From Sphingomonas sp. 32-66-10 (lineage in GTDB: Bacteria > Pseudomonadota > Alphaproteobacteria > Sphingomonadales > Sphingomonadaceae), in assembly GCA_002280565.1 (NCBI GenBank), contig NCEF01000028.1:1-43948 (forward strand): 43,948 nt of DNA, given 5' to 3'. The notes below the pieces were generated by a model. It saw nothing but the letters and a program-made list of their open reading frames with translations, made no database searches and was not told the origin of the DNA. Below, in pieces: positions 17,693 through 43,948 of the stretch. The translations under genes and the position numbers were made by a program. The first letter of the stretch is position 1. Each line of letters starts with the position of its first letter.

Positions 17693-19830
17693 TCATCCCG
17701 CATCGGCATCACCGTCTCCGCCTGCAGCCACGGATGCCGCGCCCCCGCCCGCCGCACCGTCACCACTTTCGGGCGCTCCCCAAACGTGATCGCCACCCCG
17801 CCGGTTGCCTCCAGCTGGGCGCGATCCAGCTTCAGCCACTTCGGCACGCACCCGCGTGGCAGCCAGCGGTCCGCCACGATGATGTCCGCCGACGCGCAGA
17901 ACGCGACCATCTCGCGCCACGGCACGCGATAGCCACTGCGCGTCGCCGCGATCCGCCAGCTTCGCCCGCCGCGCTCGACCGTCACCATGCACAGATCCGC
18001 ACTGCACCGCGCGCCGCGCTGCTCGGCGAGCGCCGGAAGTTCGGCATCCACCCCGCCATTCTCCGCCAGTGTGTCGCGGACATAATCCCCCGCCCGGTCG
18101 CGCAGCAGCGCCAGCTCGCCCCCCGGCATCCGCAGCGCAAGATGCCGACCGTCGCCGGTCACCAGCAAGTCCGGCATCGGCGTCGCCAGCGCCCACACTG
18201 CCCCCACGGCAACCGGAACCAGCCCGACCAACCGCACCCGCGTCCGCCACAACGCGATCCACGCGCCGCCGCCCACCATCAGCGCATAGGCCCCGCCCGG
18301 CATCGCGGGCAGCATCGCCAACGCGCCGGGTGCATTGGCGGCGGTGTGCGCAATCCAAAGCAACAGGTGCAGCCCCTGTTCCGCCACCCACCAGAAGGGC
18401 GCGCCCAGCCCCGCTGCATCGAACACCAGCCCCGCCGCCTCGAACGGCATCACGACAAAGGTGGTCAGCGGAATCGCCACGATATTGGCCAGCGAGCCGT
18501 ACAGGCCCGACTTGTGGAAATGGAAGAGCGCAATCGGCGTCAGCGCGATTTCGACCACCAGGCCCGTGAGCAGCAGTGAGGCAATCCCGCGCACCAGCCG
18601 CCGCCCCCACCCCTCCTCGCGCCGCTCGAACCAGCCGCGCACCCGCTGATTCTCGTACAGCGCGACGATCGCGGTGACCGCGGCAAAGCTCATCTGAAAG
18701 CTCGGGCCCATCAGCGCCTCGGGCCACAGCAACAGCACCACCAGCGCGCCAAACGCGACGAGACGCAGCGTGATCGCCTGTCGCCCCAGCATCATCGCCG
18801 CCAGCACCATCAGCGCGGCGATGCACGACCGCACCGTCGGCACCTCCGCCCCGGTCAGCAGCGTATAGCCCACCGCCGCCAGCCCGGCGACGCCGGCCGC
18901 GATCACCGGCAATGGCCAGCGCAGCGCCAGCCACGGGCTGAGCGCCAGCAGCCGCAGCACCAGCAGCATCGTCGCTCCGACCACCGCCGTCACATGCAGC
19001 CCGCTCACCGACAACAGATGCGCCAGCCCCGATCGCCGCAACGCCTCGGCATCCTCCTCGCTGATCGCGCCGCGATCACCGGTCACCAGTGCCGCGGCAA
19101 TCCCGCCCGCACTCCCCTCAACCCGCGACTGCACATGCGCCGTCAGCCGCGCGCGCAGTCCGCTGTCTGGTCGGCCCGGCGCGATTACCTCGACCGGCGC
19201 AAACCTCCGCCCGGTCGCGCCCAGTCCATCGAACCACGCCACCCGCTCGAAATCATAGGCCCCCGGCACCGCCGGCGGCGCAGGCGGCATCAACCGCGCG
19301 CGCACCCGCACCCGCGCGCCGGGCGTCAGCCCATCCGGCAAATCCTTCACCGCCAGATTGACCCGCACCAGGCCCGGCAAGCCGCTCCCCGCATCGGTCG
19401 CGATCCGCAGCCGCACCAGTTCGCGCGCGGGCATCGGTTCGATCCGCGCGACGGTTCCGACGACCTGCACCACCGCCGGACGCGCGAGCACTGGCGCCGC
19501 CACCCGCTCCGCCCGCCACCACACCAGCGCGCAACCCAGCGCGACCAGCAGTCCCGCCCACACCAGCGCCCGCGCCGCGCGCCCGCTACGTCCCACCGCC
19601 AGCCCCGCCGCCGCCAGCGCGAGCCCGCCCAGGATCACCGCGCCCCAGCGCGCCGCATCGGGCAATGCAAACCACGCCGCGATCCCCGCCCCGATCATCA
19701 CCGGCACCCACAGGAACAGCTGCCCGCGCTCGGCCTCCAGCCAGCGCTCGACCCGCGCGGCGACGCCGCCCGGCCATGCCGGGGTCGGGAACCGCATCGG
19801 CCCCCATGCGCGCGCGGCGTCGGTCCCCAT
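17686..19830 (-). CDS. comEC: ComEC/Rec2 family DNA-uptake channel protein
   Basis: The ATG at 19830 gives 714 residues. The protein has N-terminal membrane helices, then a DUF4131-type soluble region (about 110-220). The Competence domain follows: AAALVTGDRGAISEEDAEAL, LLSVSGLHVTAVVG, TGAEVPTVRSCIAA, GPSFQMSFAAV, and many helices. The C-terminal part (about 545-714) sits where other ComEC proteins have a metallo-beta-lactamase domain. Here the HxHxDH metal motif is absent, so it is degenerate. The protein carries single-stranded DNA across the inner membrane in natural transformation. In this gene order comEC usually follows lexA; here it is convergent with two inserted genes between. Confidence 0.92.
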   Translation of the reverse strand: MGTDAARAWGPMRFPTPAWPGGVAARVERWLEAERGQLFLWVPVMIGAGIAAWFALPDAARWGAVILGGLALAAAGLAVGRSGRAARALVWAGLLVALGCALVWWRAERVAAPVLARPAVVQVVGTVARIEPMPARELVRLRIATDAGSGLPGLVRVNLAVKDLPDGLTPGARVRVRARLMPPAPPAVPGAYDFERVAWFDGLGATGRRFAPVEVIAPGRPDSGLRARLTAHVQSRVEGSAGGIAAALVTGDRGAISEEDAEALRRSGLAHLLSVSGLHVTAVVGATMLLVLRLLALSPWLALRWPLPVIAAGVAGLAAVGYTLLTGAEVPTVRSCIAALMVLAAMMLGRQAITLRLVAFGALVVLLLWPEALMGPSFQMSFAAVTAIVALYENQRVRGWFERREEGWGRRLVRGIASLLLTGLVVEIALTPIALFHFHKSGLYGSLANIVAIPLTTFVVMPFEAAGLVFDAAGLGAPFWWVAEQGLHLLLWIAHTAANAPGALAMLPAMPGGAYALMVGGGAWIALWRTRVRLVGLVPVAVGAVWALATPMPDLLVTGDGRHLALRMPGGELALLRDRAGDYVRDTLAENGGVDAELPALAEQRGARCSADLCMVTVERGGRSWRIAATRSGYRVPWREMVAFCASADIIVADRWLPRGCVPKWLKLDRAQLEATGGVAITFGERPKVVTVRRAGARHPWLQAETVMPMRDDQ

Positions 19831-19975
19831 CGGGAGTGCAGCTTGGGCCAGCCATAGTCCCTACGCAACCCACTCCAATACCCTACGTATCACTGCGGTT
19901 TGAAGCGCATCGCACCGCGTGCTAGGGGCGCAGCCGGCCATCCCGGCCACCCTTTGCAAGCTGGAGATCGCGCGG

Positions 19976-21403
19976 TTGAGCGCAGTAGTTGAGCCTTCGG
20001 GCGCCACCATCGTTACGCGCTTCGCGCCCTCGCCGACCGGCTTCCTGCACATCGGCGGCGCGCGCACCGCGCTGTTCAACTGGCTGTTCGCCCGTCATCA
20101 CGGCGGCAAGTTCCTGCTGCGGATCGAGGATACCGATCGCGCCCGCTCGACCGAGCCCGCGATCGCCGCGATCCTGGACGGGATGCGCTGGCTCGGCCTC
20201 GATTGGGATGGCGAGGAAGTCTATCAGTTCGCCCGCGCCGCTCGCCACGCCGAAGTCGCGCACGCGATGCTCGAAAGCGGCCACGCCTATCGCTGCTGGA
20301 TGACGCAGGAGGAAATCGCGGCACAGCGTGAGGCGGCGCAGGCGGCGAAGCAACCCTATCGCATCCGCAGCCCGTGGCGCGACCGGACCGATGGCCCGCT
20401 CGATCAGCCTTATGTCGTCCGTATCCGCGCCGAGCGGGAGGGCGCGACGACGATCCGCGACCTCGTCCAGGGCGAAGTGACGGTGCAGAATGCCGAGCTG
20501 GACGACATGGTCCTGCTGCGCTCGGACGGCACGCCGACCTATATGCTCGCGGTGGTGGTCGACGATCACGACATGGGCGTGACCCATGTCATTCGCGGCG
20601 ACGATCACCTCAACAACGCCTTTCGCCAGCTGACCATCATCCGCGCGATGAACTGGGCCGAGCCGACCTATGCCCATATCCCGCTGATCCACGGCGCGGA
20701 CGGGGCGAAGCTGTCGAAGCGGCACGGCGCGCTGGGTGTCGACAATTATCGCGACGAACTCGGCGTGCTGCCCGAAGCGCTGTTCAACCACCTGCTCCGC
20801 CTAGGGTGGGGCCATGGCGATGCCGAGATCATCGACCGGGCACAGGCGATCGAGTGGTTCACGCTCGACGGCGTCGGCAAGTCGCCTTCGCGCTTCGATC
20901 TGAAGAAGCTCGACAGCCTGAACGGCCATTATATCCGCGCCGCCGACGATGCGCGCCTTGCCGAACTCGCCGCACCATTCCTGCCATTCGATCCGACGGC
21001 GGAACAGCGCGACCTTCTGCAGCGCAGCATGCACGCGCTCAAGCCGCGCGCGGCGAGCCTGATCGAAATCGCCAATGGCGCGGCCTTCCTGTTCGCCACC
21101 CGCCCGCTTCAAATCGACGCAGATGCGGTGCCGCTGCTTGAAGGCCCGGCACGCGAACTTATTTCGCAACTGCACAGCGCGCTTGACGCGGTGGCGGACT
21201 GGAATACGGAAGCACTCGAAGCTGCGGTACGTGAGGTCGCAGAGTCGGCGGGGGTCAAACTGGGCGCGGTGGCACAGCCATTGCGCGCGGCGCTTACCGG
21301 CAAGCGCACCTCACCGGGGATTTACGATGTGCTCTTTCTGCTGGGGCGCGACGAAAGCCTCAGCCGCATTGCAGATCAGATGACGGCCTCCCCGGGCAAT
21401 TGA
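19976..21403 (+). CDS. gltX: Glutamate--tRNA ligase
   Basis: I chose the TTG at 19976 ([15 protein letters not shown]), giving 475 residues, because family proteins start shortly before [14 protein letters not shown] at 19919 would add 19 unmatched residues. The class I signature HIGH is HIGG in [20 protein letters not shown], and KMSKS is KLSKR in [18 protein letters not shown] and [14 protein letters not shown] also match. It charges tRNA-Glu and may also charge tRNA-Gln in bacteria using the amidotransferase route. The 145-base gap to comEC must hold the divergent promoters. gltA follows by 29 bases. Confidence 0.95.
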
Positions 21404-35651: not shown

Positions 35652-37709
35652 CTACCCCGCCCGCAACAACCCCACCGCAGCATCCCGCTCGAACAAATAC
35701 AACGCCACCCGCGCCGCCTGCCCGCGCGCGCCGTCCAGCCCGCCGTCGCGATCGACCAGCAGCCGCGCGTCATCGGTCGCCGCGGCGATCAGCTCGGCGA
35801 ACTTTTCCGGCGGGGCGAGCCGGAAGGTCTGTTCCCCCGATTGCCGCGTGCCCAGCATCTCGCCCGCCCCACGCAGCCGCAGGTCCTCCTCGGCAATCCG
35901 AAACCCGTCATTGGTCTCGCGCATCAGCGCCAGCCGCGCCCGCGACGTCTCGCTCAATGTCCCCCCGCGCAGCAGCACGCACACCGACCGCCCCCCGCCG
36001 CGCCCGACCCGCCCGCGCAGCTGGTGGAGTTGCGCCAGCCCGAACCGGTCCGCCGCCTCGATCACGATCAGCGTCGCGTTGGGGACATCGACCCCCACCT
36101 CGATCACCGTCGTCGCGACCAGTACGCCCAGCTCGCCAGCGGAAAAGCGCGCCATCACCGCGTCCTTCTCCGGCCCCTTCATCCGGCCATGGACCAGCCC
36201 CACCCGCTCGCCGAACCGCGCGCGCAGCGCCTCGGCCCGCGCTTCGGCGGCAGCCAGGTCGGTCTTCTCGCTCTCCTCGACCAGCGGGCACACCCAATAG
36301 GCCTGCCCCCCGCCCGACAGATGCCGGGCAAGGCCGTTGACGACCTCCTCGATCCGCTCCTCGCTGATCACGCTGGTCTCGATCGGCTGGCGGCCCGGCG
36401 GCATCTCGTCGAGCTTGCTGACATCCATCTCGCCATGCGTCGCGAGTTGCAGCGTGCGCGGGATCGGCGTCGCGGTCATCACCAGCAGATGCGGCGCGGT
36501 CTTCGCCTTGGCCTGCAACATCATCCGCTCGGCCACGCCAAAGCGATGCTGCTCGTCCACCACGACAAGGCCGAGGTCACGATACTCGACCCCCTGCTGA
36601 AAGATCGCGTGCGTGCCGATCAAGATGTCGATCGACCCATCCGCGACCCCCATCAGCGTCGCCTCGCGCACCCGGCCCTTGTCGCGCCCGGTGAGGATCG
36701 CGATCTCGACGCCAAGGCCAGCGAACAGCTTGCGCAGCGTCTCATAATGCTGGCGCGCGAGGATTTCGGTCGGCGCCAGCATCGCCCCCTGCGCCCCCGC
36801 CTCGACCGCGATCAGCAGCGCCATCGCCGCCACCAGCGTCTTGCCCGCGCCGACATCGCCCTGCAGCAGCCGCAGCATCGGGCGCGGCTGCGCCATATCG
36901 CCCTCGATCTCGCGGATCGTCCGCGCCTGCGCGCCCGTCGGCGTGTAGGGCAGGTGCAGCGCATCGCGCAGCCGCCCGTCCCCAGCCAGCGCCCGCCCCT
37001 TCTTCGCCCGCGCCGCCCCCCGCACCAGCATCAGCGCCAGCTGATTGGCGAACACCTCGTCATAGGCCAGCCGGTCGCGCGCCTTGGCATCCGCCGGGTC
37101 CGCATGGATCGCGGCAAGCGCCTCGCGCCAGTCGGGCCAGCCCTTGCGCGCTTTCAAGCTCGGCTCGATCCATTCGGGCAGCTCGGGCGCGCGCGCCACC
37201 GCCTGCGCGGCAAAGTCCGCCAGCCGCTTCGACGTCATCCCCTCCGACAGCGGATAGATCGCCTCGCGCCCGCCCGGCCGCGGCTCGCTCAGCGCGACGA
37301 TCTCCGGGTGCACGATCTGCAATTCCTGCCCGTACTGGTCGAGCCGCCCCGACACCCATTTCGCCTCGTTCAGCGGCAGTTGCTTCTTCGCCCAGCCGCT
37401 ATTCCCGCCAAAGAACACCAAGGTCACATAATTGCCGCGCGCATCGGTCGCCTCGACCCGCGCCGGCGCCCGCGCGCTCCCGCTCATGCGATAATTCACC
37501 GGGGTCAGCTGGATCGCGATCGTCCGCCCGACATCGGCCTGATCCAGCTCTTCGCGCGGCAGCCGGTCGATATATCCGCTCGGCAGATGGAACGCGACAT
37601 CCACCACCCGCGCCAGCCCCAGCCGCTCCAGCGGCTTGGCCAATTGCGGCCCGACGCCCTTGAGGACGGTGACTTCGGCGAACAGGGGATTGAGGATGTC
37701 GGGACGCAT
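35652..37709 (-). CDS. recG: ATP-dependent DNA helicase RecG
   Basis: The ATG at 37709 gives 685 residues, the usual length. The wedge (OB) domain is N-terminal, with LKGVGPQLAKPLERLGL at the start. Helicase motifs follow: Walker A GDVGAGKT at 284-291, DEQH box in VVVDEQHRFGV, MTATPIPRTL, and QLRGRVGRGG. DLRLRGAGEMLGTRQSG near the C-terminus is diagnostic for RecG. It remodels stalled replication forks and Holliday junctions. It diverges from sdhE across 71 bases. Confidence 0.96.
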   Translation of the reverse strand: MRPDILNPLFAEVTVLKGVGPQLAKPLERLGLARVVDVAFHLPSGYIDRLPREELDQADVGRTIAIQLTPVNYRMSGSARAPARVEATDARGNYVTLVFFGGNSGWAKKQLPLNEAKWVSGRLDQYGQELQIVHPEIVALSEPRPGGREAIYPLSEGMTSKRLADFAAQAVARAPELPEWIEPSLKARKGWPDWREALAAIHADPADAKARDRLAYDEVFANQLALMLVRGAARAKKGRALAGDGRLRDALHLPYTPTGAQARTIREIEGDMAQPRPMLRLLQGDVGAGKTLVAAMALLIAVEAGAQGAMLAPTEILARQHYETLRKLFAGLGVEIAILTGRDKGRVREATLMGVADGSIDILIGTHAIFQQGVEYRDLGLVVVDEQHRFGVAERMMLQAKAKTAPHLLVMTATPIPRTLQLATHGEMDVSKLDEMPPGRQPIETSVISEERIEEVVNGLARHLSGGGQAYWVCPLVEESEKTDLAAAEARAEALRARFGERVGLVHGRMKGPEKDAVMARFSAGELGVLVATTVIEVGVDVPNATLIVIEAADRFGLAQLHQLRGRVGRGGGRSVCVLLRGGTLSETSRARLALMRETNDGFRIAEEDLRLRGAGEMLGTRQSGEQTFRLAPPEKFAELIAAATDDARLLVDRDGGLDGARGQAARVALYLFERDAAVGLLRAG

Positions 37710-38085: not shown

Positions 38086-41000
38086 ATGCCCGACCTCAAC
38101 CGCATCCTCACCGCCAAGGCCCCGCTGACCCTGTCCGGCGTCCCCACGGGCTTCCTCCCCTGGCTGCTCGCCGATCTCGCGCGCGCCTCGACCAGCGGTG
38201 CGGTGTACATCGCGCCGGACGAATCCGCGATGCGCGCGGTCGCCTCCACCGCGACCTTCTTCGCGCCGGAGCTGGAGATCATCCAGTTCCCCGCCTGGGA
38301 CTGCCTCCCCTATGACCGCGCCAGCCCGACATTGCGCGTCATGGCCGAACGCATGGCGGCGCTGTCCGCGCTCCAGACGACCACCAGCAAGCCCCGCCTG
38401 ATCCTCACCACCGTCAACGCCGCCAGCCAGCGCACGCTGAACCCGTTCCGCATCCGCCAGATGACCGCGCGCCTCGCCCCGGGCGAGCGCATCTCGCTCG
38501 ACAAGCTGGCCGCCCTGCTCTCGTCCAACGGCTATGTCCGCACCGACACCGTCCATGACAGCGGCGAATTCGCGGTGCGCGGTGGCCTGGTCGATCTCTA
38601 CCCCTCGGGCGCGGAACAGGCGCTCCGCCTCGATTTCTTCGGCGACGAGATCGAAAGCGTCCGCACCTTCGACCCCAGTGATCAGCGCACGACCGGCCGC
38701 GTCGACGGCTTCACCCTCCTCCCCGCGTCCGAAGCGCTGCTCGACGAAGACACGATCAAGCGCTTCCGCACCCGCTACCGCGAAAAATTCGGCGCCACTG
38801 CCACTGGCGACCCGCTATATCAGGCGATCAGCGAAGGCCGCCGCCTTGCCGGCATGGAGCATTGGCTCCCGCTGTTCGAAGAGCGGATGGATACCCTGTT
38901 CGACCACCTCCCCGCCGACGCGGCCGTCGTCCGCGACGCGGGTGACGCGGGTGCCGCCGAAGCCCGTTTCGAGGCGATCGCCGACTATCAGGCCAACCGC
39001 GTCCGCGCCCAGTCGACCGACGCCGGCAGCTACCGCCCGCTCGGCACCGACCAGCTCTACCTCCTCCCCGCCGAGTGGGAGACGCGCCTCAAATCCGCCC
39101 GCGCCCATCTCGCGACCCCGTTCCACGAGCCCGAAAGCGCCACCGTCCTCGACTTCAACGTCGACGGCCCGCGCGACTTCGCCCCCGAGCGCGCGGCGCA
39201 ATCGAACATCTACGAAGCCGTCACCGACCACCTCACCAAGCTGCGCAAGGCGGGCAAGAAGCCGATCCTCGCCAGCTACTCGACCGGCTCGCGCGAGCGG
39301 CTCAAGGGCCTGCTCGCCGACCATGGCCTGACCAGCACCGTGCTGGCGGACGGCTGGCAGGAGGCGCTCGGCGCCGCAGCGGGCGGCCGCGATTCCGCCA
39401 ATGTCGCCCTCATCGTCCTCCCGCTCGACCACGGCTTCACCGCGCCCGACATCGCGCTGCTGACCGAACAGGACATGCTCGGCGACCGGCTGATCCGCCG
39501 CAACAAGCGCAAGAAGTCGACCGACGCCTTCCTCGCCGAACTCGCCACCCTCTCCCCCGGCGACCTCGTCGTCCACGCCGAACATGGCATCGGCCGCTAT
39601 GAGGGGCTCACGCAAATCCCGGTGCAACAGGCACCGCATGATTGCGTCGCGCTCTCCTATGCCGGCGGCGACAAGCTCTACGTTCCGGTCGAAAACCTCG
39701 AAGTCCTCACCCGCTACGGCTCCTCCGAAGAGGGCGCGACCCTCGACCGCCTCGGCGGCGAAGCCTGGCAGCGGCGCAAGTCGAAGATGAAGGAGCGCAT
39801 CCGCGAAATCGCGGGTGAACTCATCGCCACCGCCGCCGCCCGCGCCGTCCGCCCGGGTGAGGTGATCGACCCCGACCCCGGCGCCTATCCCGCCTTTGTC
39901 GACCGCTTCCCGTTCAGCGAGACCGACGATCAGGAACGCGCCATCGGCGAAACGCTCGACGATCTCGCCGCCGGCCGCCCGATGGACCGGCTCGTCGTCG
40001 GCGATGTCGGCTTCGGCAAGACCGAGGTCGCGCTGCGCGCCGCCTTCGTCGCGGCGATGGCCGGCTATCAGGTCGCGATCGTCTGCCCGACCACCCTGCT
40101 CGCGCGCCAGCATTACACCAACTTCGTCGCCCGGTTTGAAGGGTTCCCGCTGCGCATCGGCCGCCTCTCCCGCCTCGTCCCCGCTGCCGAGGCCAAGGCG
40201 ACCAAGGAAGCCCTCGAAAACGGCACGCTCGACGTCGTCGTCGGCACCCACGCCGTCCTCGCCAAGGGCATCGAATTCAAGCGCCTCGGCCTGGTCGTGG
40301 TGGATGAGGAACAGCGCTTCGGCGTCACCCACAAGGAACGGCTCAAGGGTCTCAAGGCCGACGTCCACGTCCTCACCCTCACCGCCACCCCGATCCCGCG
40401 CACGCTGCAAATGGCGATGTCGGGCCTGCGCGAGCTGTCGGTGATCCAGACCCCGCCGGTCGATCGCCTCGCGGTGCGCACCTATGTCATGCCGTGGGAC
40501 CCGGTGGTCCTGCGCGAAGCCCTGTTGCGCGAACATTATCGCGGCGGGCAGAGTTTCTTCGTCACCCCGCGCATCGCCGACCTGCCCGACATCGAGAAGT
40601 TCCTGCGCGAGGATGTGCCGGAGGTCCGCTACGTCGTCGCCCATGGCCAGATGGCGGCGAGCGAGGTCGAGGAGCGCATGTCCGCCTTCTACGACAAGAA
40701 GTATGAGGTGCTGGTCTCTACCACCATCATCGAATCCGGCCTCGACATCCCGTCCGCCAACACGATGATCGTCAACCGCGCCGACCGCTTCGGCCTGGCG
40801 CAACTCTATCAGCTGCGCGGCCGCGTCGGGCGCGCCAAGACCCGCGCCTATGCGTACATGACCACCGCGCCCCAGCGGCTGATGACCGATGGCGCGGAAA
40901 AGCGCCTCAAGGTCCTCTCCGACCTCGATTCACTGGGCGCGGGGTTTCAGCTCGCCAGCCACGATCTCGACATTCGCGGCGCGGGCAATCTGCTCGGCGA

Positions 41001-41562
41001 CGAACAGTCCGGGCATATCAAGGAGGTCGGCTACGAACTCTACCAGTCGATGCTGGAGGAAGCGATCATGGACGCCAAGGCCGGCGGCATCCGCGACGAC
41101 GCCCGCCCGCGCGACCTGTCCCCCCAGATCACCGTCGACGCCCCGATCCTCATCCCCGAAGGCTTCGTCCCCGACCTCGACCTGCGCATGGGCCTCTACC
41201 GCCGCCTGAACGAGGTCGAGGACAAGCGCGGCATCGACGAATTCGCCGCCGAGATGATCGACCGCTTCGGCAAGCTGCCGGAGGAGACCGAACACCTCCT
41301 CACCCTGATCGAGGCCAAGCTGAACGCCAAGCGCGCCTGCATCGCCAAGATCGACGTCGGCCCAAAGGGCGCGCTCGTCACCTTCCACGAAGACAAATTC
41401 CCCAGCGTCGAAGGCCTGATGGCCTATGTCGAACGCCTCGACGGCACCGCCAAGCTGCGCCCCGACATGAAACTGGTCGTGGCGCGGGCGTTCGCGACGC
41501 CGAGGGCGCGGCTGAACGCCGCGCTGCAGATTTCGCGGGGGTTGGCTAAGGCGGCGGGGTGA
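38086..41562 (+). CDS. mfd: Transcription-repair coupling factor
   Basis: This 1158-residue protein matches Mfd length. The UvrB-like N-terminal region (about 1-350) has FPAWDCLPYDRASP. The RNA-polymerase-interacting domain starts SPGDLVVHAEHGIGRYEGL (about 485-505). Helicase motifs follow: Walker A GDVGFGKT at 639-646, VVVDEEQRFGV, LTATPIPRTL, and QLRGRVGRAK. The C-terminal TRCF domain (DLDLRMGLYRRLNEVED) closes it. It removes stalled RNA polymerase at DNA damage and recruits UvrA. Its stop marks the left edge of the AT-rich island. Confidence 0.97.
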   Translation: MPDLNRILTAKAPLTLSGVPTGFLPWLLADLARASTSGAVYIAPDESAMRAVASTATFFAPELEIIQFPAWDCLPYDRASPTLRVMAERMAALSALQTTTSKPRLILTTVNAASQRTLNPFRIRQMTARLAPGERISLDKLAALLSSNGYVRTDTVHDSGEFAVRGGLVDLYPSGAEQALRLDFFGDEIESVRTFDPSDQRTTGRVDGFTLLPASEALLDEDTIKRFRTRYREKFGATATGDPLYQAISEGRRLAGMEHWLPLFEERMDTLFDHLPADAAVVRDAGDAGAAEARFEAIADYQANRVRAQSTDAGSYRPLGTDQLYLLPAEWETRLKSARAHLATPFHEPESATVLDFNVDGPRDFAPERAAQSNIYEAVTDHLTKLRKAGKKPILASYSTGSRERLKGLLADHGLTSTVLADGWQEALGAAAGGRDSANVALIVLPLDHGFTAPDIALLTEQDMLGDRLIRRNKRKKSTDAFLAELATLSPGDLVVHAEHGIGRYEGLTQIPVQQAPHDCVALSYAGGDKLYVPVENLEVLTRYGSSEEGATLDRLGGEAWQRRKSKMKERIREIAGELIATAAARAVRPGEVIDPDPGAYPAFVDRFPFSETDDQERAIGETLDDLAAGRPMDRLVVGDVGFGKTEVALRAAFVAAMAGYQVAIVCPTTLLARQHYTNFVARFEGFPLRIGRLSRLVPAAEAKATKEALENGTLDVVVGTHAVLAKGIEFKRLGLVVVDEEQRFGVTHKERLKGLKADVHVLTLTATPIPRTLQMAMSGLRELSVIQTPPVDRLAVRTYVMPWDPVVLREALLREHYRGGQSFFVTPRIADLPDIEKFLREDVPEVRYVVAHGQMAASEVEERMSAFYDKKYEVLVSTTIIESGLDIPSANTMIVNRADRFGLAQLYQLRGRVGRAKTRAYAYMTTAPQRLMTDGAEKRLKVLSDLDSLGAGFQLASHDLDIRGAGNLLGDEQSGHIKEVGYELYQSMLEEAIMDAKAGGIRDDARPRDLSPQITVDAPILIPEGFVPDLDLRMGLYRRLNEVEDKRGIDEFAAEMIDRFGKLPEETEHLLTLIEAKLNAKRACIAKIDVGPKGALVTFHEDKFPSVEGLMAYVERLDGTAKLRPDMKLVVARAFATPRARLNAALQISRGLAKAAG

Positions 41563-41628
41563 GTCGTCCAACTGCTTGCGTTGTTAACATCTACCGCTCG
41601 AACTTATTACTTCCACATTCGCGATAAT

Positions 41629-42519
41629 CTAGGGAATGTAGGTCGCAGTTGTCTTGAACTCCAAACCGTCAAGCAGAGAACGCATAAAACCCTGAATACC
41701 TTTCCTCCAAAGAAGGCGATAAACGGTATCATACTCTTCAAGCATTTGTTCCGGCATTTCACGCTGCCTTTGGCCGGTATCAGGATCGCTATAAGTTTGT
41801 GTTCCGAACAGAAAATTGAACCAAAGTCCAGAATAGTCGCGGTTTGCCGGCGCTGAAACATCGTAAGTTACCGACAGCCTGCCATCACTACTGTTTCGAT
41901 CCCAGACATTAACTTTATAATCCGCCCTAGAAATTTCAGTTGAGCTGCCCTCAACCGACTCAATCATACCGTCACTTCCCGGGATCTTTGTAATTAGTCG
42001 ATTCAAAACTTGATAGTTTTTATTTTCCTTCGCGTCTTTTCGAAAATCATAAGCGACGAATCCAAACCTATATATCACGTTCGTAACATTCATCTTACGT
42101 CTCAACAACTCCTCCATCAGATCAAGAAGCGATGATACTAAAGTTCGCATACCTGGAAGAGCGGACTGGTACCAAAAATGAAAAGTTTGCATCTTTAGAC
42201 CAGATTTACTTATAACAACCTTGTTTTGATATACACTAACTTGAAAATCATAGATATCGTCTTTATAAAGAATCGAGAAATTATCTGCGGATTTGGATTG
42301 CTGCAATTGGCTCTCTGAATAAAACTGGGCAGTTTGAAGAAGCGCTATCATGTCGTCATGCAAACGGTCCTGCAATCTTGCACGAATTTCATCGTTCTCC
42401 CAGTCTGCGATCATCGGAAAATCGATGGTCATTTGAAACGAATTTATATCGTGCACTTTGTAAGCAAAAGAGTTCGCATCATCAAATTCTAAGTATGACT
42501 TGGGCTGAGCGGCGTTCAT
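41629..42519 (-). CDS. Protein of unknown function, third gene of the AAA+ operon
   Basis: This 296-residue protein starts in an ATGA overlap with the ClpX-like gene. It is acidic and soluble, without signal peptide or membrane helix. Strand-rich parts (FQMTIDFPMIADW, VSVYQNKVVISKSG) flank a helix (GMRTLVSSLLDLMEELLRRK), then VIYRFGFVAYDF, a long strand-rich part and a C-terminal helix (LLWRKGIQGFMRSLLDGLEF). The layout reminds me of the sporadic TIGR04255 family (strand, helix, RxGxRY strand, late helices), but this is a weak resemblance. Coupling with the ATPase suggests a partner or regulator. Confidence 0.7.
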   Translation of the reverse strand: MNAAQPKSYLEFDDANSFAYKVHDINSFQMTIDFPMIADWENDEIRARLQDRLHDDMIALLQTAQFYSESQLQQSKSADNFSILYKDDIYDFQVSVYQNKVVISKSGLKMQTFHFWYQSALPGMRTLVSSLLDLMEELLRRKMNVTNVIYRFGFVAYDFRKDAKENKNYQVLNRLITKIPGSDGMIESVEGSSTEISRADYKVNVWDRNSSDGRLSVTYDVSAPANRDYSGLWFNFLFGTQTYSDPDTGQRQREMPEQMLEEYDTVYRLLWRKGIQGFMRSLLDGLEFKTTATYIP

Positions 42520-43616
42520 AAGCTTTTTCCTTCATCTAAATGCCTTAAGTCAACATAAAGATCAGACTGCTCACTATCCTCATTCTCATACGCAAATTTC
42601 GACATAGGAGTAAACAACATTTGCTGCAGCCCTCGCGCCCCAATTTGGAGGGCGACAGCGCGTTTTGAGATTTCAATCAAAAATTCGTCTGAAACGATTA
42701 AATTTTTTCCAATTTCAGCAAAATGATTTGTCCAAATCGCTAAAGGAGATGACACAGGATGCCTCAATATATCTAACAAGGCCGATTCATCGAGCCCTGT
42801 GTACTGAATAATGGCCGGAAGCCTTGAAACGAACTCGGGTATCATTCCATAATTCTTGATGTCTTCCGCGACCACGTCGTTCGTTCGTTTAGAACGACTT
42901 AACATTCTCTGCGTCTCTGGCGATCTAAGCCGACGAACGCGCTCAATTCCTGAGAAAGCGCCCCCCATTATAAAAAGAGCTCTTGGCTCTTCCGACGAAG
43001 TATCCACGTACTGTGTTTCTATAAATTTTAGTAACGATCGCTGGATATCACTCTTCCAATAGGCATTATTGTCTTTCTCATCAGCGGCCAACTTATCAAT
43101 TTCATCAATAAAAACGATAACTTTAGATGCAGACTGTCGGCTTATTTCCGCGCGCAGTTCGCTAATTGAGCTTCCAGTTCGCGCACCTTCGGGGACAAGA
43201 TTGGTCGCATCAAAGACATGAACAGGTATATTTAAGGCTGACGAAGCAACCTTAATTGAAAAGGTTTTGCCACTTCCGGTGGGTCCCAAAATTATACCAT
43301 TAGGCGGGGGGTTAAGCGCAGCTGAGGAAGGATTCCAGTGCAGAAACATCGATATCAGAATGCTGAGAGACTGCTTGGCGGGTTCTTGACCTATAACCTT
43401 TTCATCTAATATCTTTTTAATATCAGACGCCCTAGCAGTAGAAATGCTTTGTTCTGAACAATCGATCTCGGCCGCACCCACCTTTTCGTTTACATCATCT
43501 AATTCTGCTGACCGGATTTTTGGCCGTGAGCGAAAATAATCTAACCTGCCCCTCCTGTTAGAGCTTGCATGGCTATTGAACCAAAGGCGCTCGTGTCGAT
43601 TTACAACCTTAGCCAT
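42516..43616 (-). CDS. ClpX-like AAA+ ATPase without zinc domain, pore loops or ClpP loop
   Basis: The ATG at 43616 gives 366 residues; it overlaps the upstream gene by eight bases (an upstream ATG at 43634 is possible). From LDEKVIGQEPAKQSL (residues 70-84) the order follows ClpX: Walker A GPTGSGKT 111-118, Walker B VIVFIDEID 166-174, FIMGGAFSGIERV, Arg finger Arg265 in GMIPEFVSRLP, sensor-2 Arg328 in IGARGL. Differences: no N-terminal zinc-binding domain (residues 1-65 unrelated), GYVG pore loop replaced by GARTG (144-148), the RKH loop absent, and the IGF loop shortened away. ATP hydrolysis is likely. Classical protein threading and ClpP docking are not. Confidence 0.85.
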   Translation of the reverse strand: MAKVVNRHERLWFNSHASSNRRGRLDYFRSRPKIRSAELDDVNEKVGAAEIDCSEQSISTARASDIKKILDEKVIGQEPAKQSLSILISMFLHWNPSSAALNPPPNGIILGPTGSGKTFSIKVASSALNIPVHVFDATNLVPEGARTGSSISELRAEISRQSASKVIVFIDEIDKLAADEKDNNAYWKSDIQRSLLKFIETQYVDTSSEEPRALFIMGGAFSGIERVRRLRSPETQRMLSRSKRTNDVVAEDIKNYGMIPEFVSRLPAIIQYTGLDESALLDILRHPVSSPLAIWTNHFAEIGKNLIVSDEFLIEISKRAVALQIGARGLQQMLFTPMSKFAYENEDSEQSDLYVDLRHLDEGKSL

Positions 43617-43948
43617 TAACCTTATCCAGCTCATTTTTTAGGACATTTACCTGATTTTGAAGCGCTATTAGTTCGTCTATTCGCTGACAAGCCTCAATTA
43701 AATGAGAATTATCTTTAGTCTGCGCTATTTCACGGCTAACTCGTATTTTTAACTCGACAAGCCGATCTTCAGAAATTGGAATTTTAGCAACGAATGGTAC
43801 TAAGTCTGGGATTGCCTGCCGATGTTCTTCGATACTGCTGCGGCATGCTTGAAGACGAATCGTGCAAAGAGCCTGATCCATTTCTCGTTTTTCTCTCAAC
43901 CTTAGCTCTTCTGCTTGGTTGAACCGGTTTTGAGTATCCCATCGCTGC
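43609..43948 (-). CDS. Coiled-coil-like hypothetical protein (N-terminus outside window)
   Basis: The frame is open to the right edge, with about 16 residues readable before the TTG at 43899 (QRWDTQNRFNQAEELRL), so the start lies outside. The visible 112 or so residues are charged and helical, with heptad-like LVELKIRVSREIAQTK and LIALQNQVNVLKNELDKVNG at the end, a plausible coiled coil. The stop overlaps the ClpX-like ATG. No known family recognised. It may be a partner or targeting subunit for the ATPase. Confidence 0.65.
   Translation of the reverse strand, partial: QRWDTQNRFNQAEELRLREKREMDQALCTIRLQACRSSIEEHRQAIPDLVPFVAKIPISEDRLVELKIRVSREIAQTKDNSHLIEACQRIDELIALQNQVNVLKNELDKVNG

What the first reader, a model, noticed from the sequence alone, without database searches (positions are those of the whole stretch)
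41570..43948. AT-rich three-gene module beside mfd built around a ClpX-like ATPase
Three minus-strand genes overlap by 4 to 8 bases each: a coiled-coil-like protein (partial), a ClpX-like AAA+ ATPase and an unknown strand-rich protein. The composition shift after mfd marks an acquired block. Tight coupling of an energy module with two uncharacterised partners in a variable island is the layout of many defence or conflict systems. This grouping matches no system I can name.
Basis: partly seen in the sequence, partly recalled or inferred. Interest (0 to 1): 0.75.

Follow-up and report, generated by a model that had tools for sequence, protein, structure and literature searches.

The report
Stripped ClpX motor with orphan partners
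A foreign, AT-rich set of at least three overlapping genes sits beside a DNA-repair gene; its central protein is a relative of the protein-unfolding motor ClpX that has lost the parts ClpX uses to grip proteins and to dock onto its protease, so it probably does a different job, possibly in defence against phages, but no relatives of its partners could be found to prove this.

The parts
41629..42519 (-). Orphan partner protein, 296 aa, mixed alpha/beta; last gene of the visible operon, convergent with mfd
   Evidence: Open frame. No Pfam, NCBIfam, PADLOC or PHROG match passing a cut-off; best are Pfam PdaC E 0.012 (cut-off missed) and phrog_21532 E 0.029. No relative. Single-sequence model mean pLDDT 43.
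42516..43634 (-). ClpX-like AAA+ ATPase, 372 aa (366 aa if it starts at 43616) without zinc domain, GYVG, RKH loop and IGF loop
43609..43947 (-). Partial helical, possibly coiled-coil protein (112 aa visible, N-terminus beyond the contig end)
   Evidence: Open at the window end; heptad score; no family match.
41563..41628 (.). 66-bp junction between the mfd stop and the partner stop; the composition changes here
   Evidence: GC falls from about 70% to 42% within 100 bp; no tRNA gene in the window.

Best explanation
A horizontally acquired accessory module of at least three co-transcribed genes, most likely an anti-phage or inter-element conflict system. At its centre is a ClpX-derived AAA+ ring in which the ATPase core is kept while the parts for substrate engagement and for ClpP docking are reduced or lost. 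Steps shown: foreign composition, operon layout, ClpX fold, intact Walker motifs, absent zinc domain, pore-1 aromatic, RKH loop and IGF loop. Steps inferred: it still hydrolyses ATP and oligomerises; it does not thread proteins and does not serve ClpP; it works as an ATP-driven switch or assembly platform that holds the orphan partner and the helical protein in an inactive or poised state and changes them on a signal. Which of the two is sensor and which effector is unknown; my guess is that the helical protein tethers or senses and the 296-residue protein is the effector or target-binding part.
For: Overlapping genes with GC3 34-43% beside GC3 89% host genes. Host-like DNA downstream of mfd in 20 of 20 congeners examined. 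ClpX fold over residues 63-371. Nucleotide motifs GPTGSGKT at 117, VFIDEIDK at 174, and the conserved R271 and GARGL at 332 (their roles as arginine finger and sensor 2 are recalled). No GYVG-type motif, no xGF, no RKH and a single Cys. Against 23 ClpX-like proteins it lacks a median of 6 residues after position 166, 3 after 194, 14 after 218 (RKH loop) and 9 after 241 (IGF loop). [quoted passage not shown] A two-gene PADLOC candidate defence module, PDC-M30A/B, directly follows mfd in congener G242.
Against: No second copy of the trio was found. PADLOC gives no specific match. Only 1 of 20 congeners has a candidate defence module at the site, and it is co-directional with mfd whereas the window's module is convergent. 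EAL and MoaA genes follow mfd in most of the others, so this is not a busy hotspot. Viral frame L121 also lacks the GYVG, Cys4 and RKH motifs but keeps xGF, so partial loop loss also occurs in phage ClpX. AlphaFold used ClpX sequences as its alignment, which favours a ClpX-like model.
Confidence: 0.37

Rival explanations
1. The block is part of a prophage, phage satellite or integrative element, and the ATPase is a phage-type ClpX-like chaperone for virion assembly or takeover rather than a defence component.
For: ClpX-like frames are common in viral contigs: 310 confirmed stretches in IMG/VR, 80 kept; 231 phage records match. A comparative study names ClpX in some jumbo phages (passages of PMC7824862). 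The viral frame L121 has partly lost the same loops.
Against: No PHROG match for the two partners below E 0.029; no partner match in the phage records or IMG/VR. No phage gene, integrase or tRNA in the visible 2.3 kb, though the rest is off the contig.
Confidence: 0.25
2. Assembly artefact: AT-rich DNA of another organism was wrongly joined to the end of the mfd contig.
For: The module lies at a contig end of an 83-contig, 83%-complete genome. Of 3869 one-kilobase windows read on other contigs only 2 fall below 54% GC (52-53%), so nothing else like it was seen. None of 295 genus genomes has the partner (own genome aside).
Against: The genes begin 66 bp past an intact mfd, a natural place for an insertion; congener G242 also has a foreign module exactly there. 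Read coverage cannot be inspected here.
Confidence: 0.15
3. The ATPase modulates the host's own ClpXP, for example by co-assembling with housekeeping ClpX subunits and poisoning or redirecting it.
For: The genome has a canonical ClpX (L002, 422 aa, with GYVG and IGF); the retained AAA+ core is the part that forms subunit contacts (recalled).
Against: Only 27% identity to the host ClpX; donor and host differ in composition, so co-evolution of interfaces is unlikely.
Confidence: 0.1
4. A divergent member of Dodola, the known two-gene defence system with a Clp-like ATPase.
For: PADLOC DolB matches weakly (19.3 bits, E 1.3e-4, residues 42-135) and DolB is 375 positions long.
Against: The DolB profile is unspecific: it matched 142 of 150 genomes at E <= 1e-20, and rang in 10 of 14 named controls including E. 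coli. Other ClpX-like ATPases score it higher (26-29 bits). No DolA match for the partners. ClpX models score the ATPase far better.
Confidence: 0.05

Closest known systems
ClpX, ATP-binding subunit of the ClpXP protease (NCBIfam NF003745 / TIGR00382)
   Same: Fold over residues 63-371, Walker A and B, GARGL box, gene length class
   Different: 25-37% identity only; far below both curated cut-offs; no zinc domain, no GYVG, no RKH loop, no IGF loop
HslU / ClpY
   Different: Lower Z and weaker family score (57 bits against 142); no HslV-like gene seen
Dodola (DolA/DolB)
   Same: A Clp-like ATPase of similar length paired with an uncharacterised protein (passages of PMC11514479)
   Different: DolB match weak and unspecific, no DolA match, three genes rather than two
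TIGR04255 (sporadically distributed, function unknown)
   Same: By eye the partner's order of helices and strands resembles it (my impression, from a low-confidence model)
   Different: No HMM match at E <= 1 and no profile support (probability 0.1%)
PDC-M30 candidate defence pair in congener G242
   Same: Accessory module of overlapping genes directly downstream of mfd
   Different: Unrelated proteins (DUF5131 and a PDC-M30A protein); co-directional with mfd, not convergent

Membership tests
ClpX | AAA+ core of the ClpX fold with Walker A and B | tested here: met
ClpX | Score above the curated family cut-off | tested here: not met
   142 of 359 bits and 119 of 371 bits
ClpX | N-terminal four-cysteine zinc domain | tested here: not met
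   One Cys, at residue 59; residues 1-61 modelled as disordered
ClpX | Pore-1 GYVG | tested here: not met
   GARTG at 150
ClpX | RKH loop | tested here: not met
   No RKH; median 14 residues missing after 218. The literal RKH letters are also absent in 54 of 174 ClpX-like frames
ClpX | IGF-type ClpP-docking loop | tested here: not met
   No [ILVM]GF; median 9 residues missing after 241. 45 of 174 frames also lack the literal motif but mostly hold a full-length loop in the rows aligned
ClpX | ATP-dependent unfolding and ClpP partnership | not testable with these tools
   Needs purified protein
Dodola | DolB ATPase | tested here: inconclusive
   19.3 bits over residues 42-135; profile unspecific
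Dodola | DolA partner | tested here: not met
   No PADLOC match at E <= 1 for the 296-aa or the partial protein
TIGR04255 | Match to the family model | tested here: not met
   None at E <= 1; hhalign with 3 members gives probability 0.1%
IetAS | IetA ATPase plus IetS protease | tested here: not met
   IetA 22 bits at most; no IetS match for the neighbours
Defence module | Protection against phage | not testable with these tools
   Experiment needed

The most novel reading that the evidence does not exclude
A new kind of conflict system in which a ClpX-derived ring has been stripped of its zinc domain, substrate-gripping loops and protease-docking loop and turned into a non-threading ATP switch that controls two orphan proteins; an unfoldase converted into a signalling hub.
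Probability: 0.28. Interest if true: 0.68.

Novelty: new variant of a known kind. Interest (0 to 1): 0.42.

Why it matters
ClpX is one of the best understood AAA+ machines, and each of its loops has a known task. A natural relative that keeps the motor but drops the substrate grip and protease dock would show directly what the bare ring can still do, and its coupling to two orphan genes on mobile DNA would give a testable case of an unfoldase recruited into another trade. At present the partners are orphans in every collection searched, so the claim rests on one locus.

Tried and rejected
Recurrence of the trio. Partner: only the window's own copy among 296 genomes of the order, 398 of the phylum and 295 of the genus; the sets overlap. 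No match in 72,556 plasmid records or 50,697 phage records at E <= 0.1, and no pattern hit in IMG/VR. Helical protein: no confirmed hit in IMG/VR, chance-level plasmid hits at E 0.5-0.6. These searches are by sequence and find close relatives best.

ATPase relatives. 500 confirmed stretches in genome contigs, 80 kept; 310 in IMG/VR, 80 kept; 58 of 385 class genomes at E <= 1e-29, one of them the window's own; 8 of 201 genus genomes at E <= 1e-28, one the window's own. The hits are ClpX proteins. The strict E-values were chosen to cut off housekeeping ClpX and would also hide distant true relatives. 14 of the loci were compared further. Neither partner had a significant match in the 178 loci then held apart from the window's own. 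In plasmids, 85 records matched, 60 listed; four unusual ones were opened: ClpX-like ATPases with unrelated neighbours.

Partner fold. The single-sequence model has mean pLDDT 43, so its Foldseek hits (best TM-score 0.16-0.21 among the first rows) mean nothing. The TIGR04255 idea came from my eye and failed both tests. One TIGR04255 relative only was found in IMG/VR, too few for an alignment test.

The right-hand side. Ends of other contigs of the same genome were read to look for the far side of the block: 114 stretches, 28 of them all N (contigs under 3 kb), 86 readable (1.03 Mb); none resembles the block. The right end of C82 and the inner parts of long contigs were not read. The protoglobin-receptor neighbour that follows mfd in some congeners has only distant paralogues in this genome.

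Literature. Searches for TIGR04255 (0 papers), ClpX-like with anti-phage terms, ClpX with phage defense and operon terms, conflict systems with ClpX, ClpX lacking IGF or zinc domain gave listings only, and I saw none describing this grouping. Passages were read of PMC13092281, PMC11514479, PMC7824862, PMC7112951 and PMC7112952; no paper was read whole.

The odds of the defence reading were lowered a little for this.

Full report
What is there. The window is an entire contig (C66 of 83) of a 2.68-Mb, 83%-complete genome. It runs through recG (35652-37709, minus) and mfd (38086-41562, plus), both confirmed by NCBIfam. Sixty-six bases after the mfd stop, three minus-strand frames begin: 41629-42519 (296 aa), 42516-43634 (372 aa) and 43609-43947 (112 aa, cut by the contig end). 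The last two genes overlap by 4 bases. The first two overlap by 26 bases from the first ATG, or by 8 if the ATPase starts at its second Met, 43616. None has an internal stop, and 0 of 200 shuffles gave a stop-free run of 296 aa.

Foreign composition. Module GC is 42.8%; 2.3-kb stretches left of 41.5 kb lie at 62.3-72.1%. GC3 is 42.8, 41.6 and 33.6% in the three genes against 89% in mfd and recG. On other contigs of the same genome, 2 of 3869 readable one-kilobase windows fall below 54% GC, at 52-53%. In 41 relatives searched for mfd, 24 congeners other than the window's genome were listed; I took the downstream DNA of 20 of them, leaving out G1187, G1194, G1265 and G1269, whose contigs or matches were short or doubtful. 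The first kilobase after mfd is 56-74% GC in all 20, and no kilobase within the 9-12 kb taken is below 54%. The block is thus acquired in this genome or mis-joined; read coverage cannot be inspected.

What usually follows mfd. Of 101 frames from the first 5.5 kb in the 20 congeners, 15 match EAL, 13 the molybdenum cofactor protein MoaA (Radical_SAM with Mob_synth_C) and 4 Protoglobin with MCPsignal. PADLOC at E <= 1e-15 gives pVip in 8 frames, which I take to be MoaA because both are radical-SAM proteins, and otherwise matches only in G242. In G242 a DUF5131 protein (319 bits in Pfam; PDC-M41B 345 and PDC-M30B 341 bits) overlaps by 4 bases a 400-aa protein that matches PDC-M30A (67 bits), followed by a GidA/TrmFO-type gene. 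It lies directly downstream of mfd, as the window's block does, but is co-directional with mfd, whereas the window's block is convergent. So the site can take up candidate defence genes, in 1 of 20 congeners.

Lost parts. The nucleotide motifs stand: GPTGSGKT at 117, VFIDEIDK at 174, and EFVSR at 267 and GARGL at 332, whose R271 and R334 are invariant in the alignment of 24. The ClpX motifs do not: no GYVG-type motif (GARTG instead), no RKH, no [ILVM]GF and a single Cys. Against 23 others the ATPase lacks a median of 6 residues after position 107, 6 after 166, 3 after 194, 14 after 218 and 9 after 241; the last two are the RKH and IGF loops. In the passages read of PMC7112951 and PMC7112952, pore-1 (GYVG) and pore-2 loops contact substrate in the channel, RKH loops recognise substrate at the entrance, and IGF loops belong to the ClpX-ClpP contact (the last partly recalled).

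How unusual is that? In 174 ClpX-like frames (80 genome contigs, 14 class genomes, 80 viral contigs), crude motifs are absent as follows: GYVG-type 4, Cys4 5, xGF 45, RKH 54; none lacks all four, and none lacks GYVG, Cys4 and xGF together. Viral frame L121 lacks three (GYVG, Cys4, RKH) but keeps xGF, and L135, L137 and L153 lack GYVG and RKH. Many Bacteroidota ClpX miss the letters xGF while keeping a loop of normal length, so single-motif counts overstate loss. The 174 are the best-scoring hits of three searches, not a random sample.

The partners. The 296-aa protein has no match over a curated cut-off; its best are Pfam PdaC E 0.012, DUF7543 E 0.056 and phrog_21532 E 0.029, and PDB hits from E 0.15. 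It is not seen in any of the genomes, plasmid, phage or viral searches. Its model is poor. The helical protein has no match below E 0.085; its C-terminal 28 residues show a heptad pattern reached in 28 of 2000 shuffles.

Interpretation. A protein that keeps the AAA+ core but drops the grip, the entrance loop, the zinc domain and the ClpP dock is unlikely to be a ClpXP subunit or a processive threader (inference; I give this step about 0.7). Locked in an operon with two orphan proteins on foreign DNA, at a site that in a congener holds a candidate defence pair, it is most simply read as the energy switch of a mobile conflict module (0.37). Rivals are a phage-derived chaperone (0.25), a mis-join (0.15), a modulator of host ClpXP (0.1) and a distant Dodola (0.05). 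The mechanism beyond the ATPase is inference.

Verdict. The finding is a new variant of a known kind: a ClpX-family ATPase stripped of its proteolytic working parts. Its setting is of real but unproven interest, because neither recurrence nor the rest of the operon could be examined.

Noticed in passing
L369:9865-11795 (congener G242, downstream of mfd): Two genes overlapping by 4 bases, DUF5131 (PDC-M30B/M41B) and a PDC-M30A protein, directly after mfd: a candidate defence pair at the site of the window's block.
   Followed up: yes
L228:3603-8983 and L230:3528-8961: Two Helicobacter plasmids carry an 806-808 aa ATPase with a ClpX-like part, a DUF2779 protein and a third protein in a row; in L228, the one scanned for all three, the second has a weak Cas4-profile match and the third a PDC-M03A match.
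   Followed up: partly
L121:7794-9017: A viral-contig ClpX-like frame lacks GYVG (GIVG), the four-cysteine motif and RKH but keeps an xGF loop: a partly stripped phage ClpX.
   Followed up: partly
L231:4857-6026: A Bdellovibrio plasmid carries a second ClpX-like gene (clpX_2) with a Cys-pair-bearing N-terminus and hypothetical neighbours; a 600-aa protein nearby matches an SspH profile.
   Followed up: no
L210:412-2152 and L212:537-2292: TIGR04255 genes in two genomes of the order are each followed by two small genes of about 170 and 140 aa that look alike between the genomes: an undescribed three-gene set. The small ones from L210 have no Pfam match.
   Followed up: partly
window 18001-20000: GC rises to 71-73% with a strong negative GC skew (-0.20 to -0.23) and a positive AT skew, unlike the rest of the window.
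   Followed up: no
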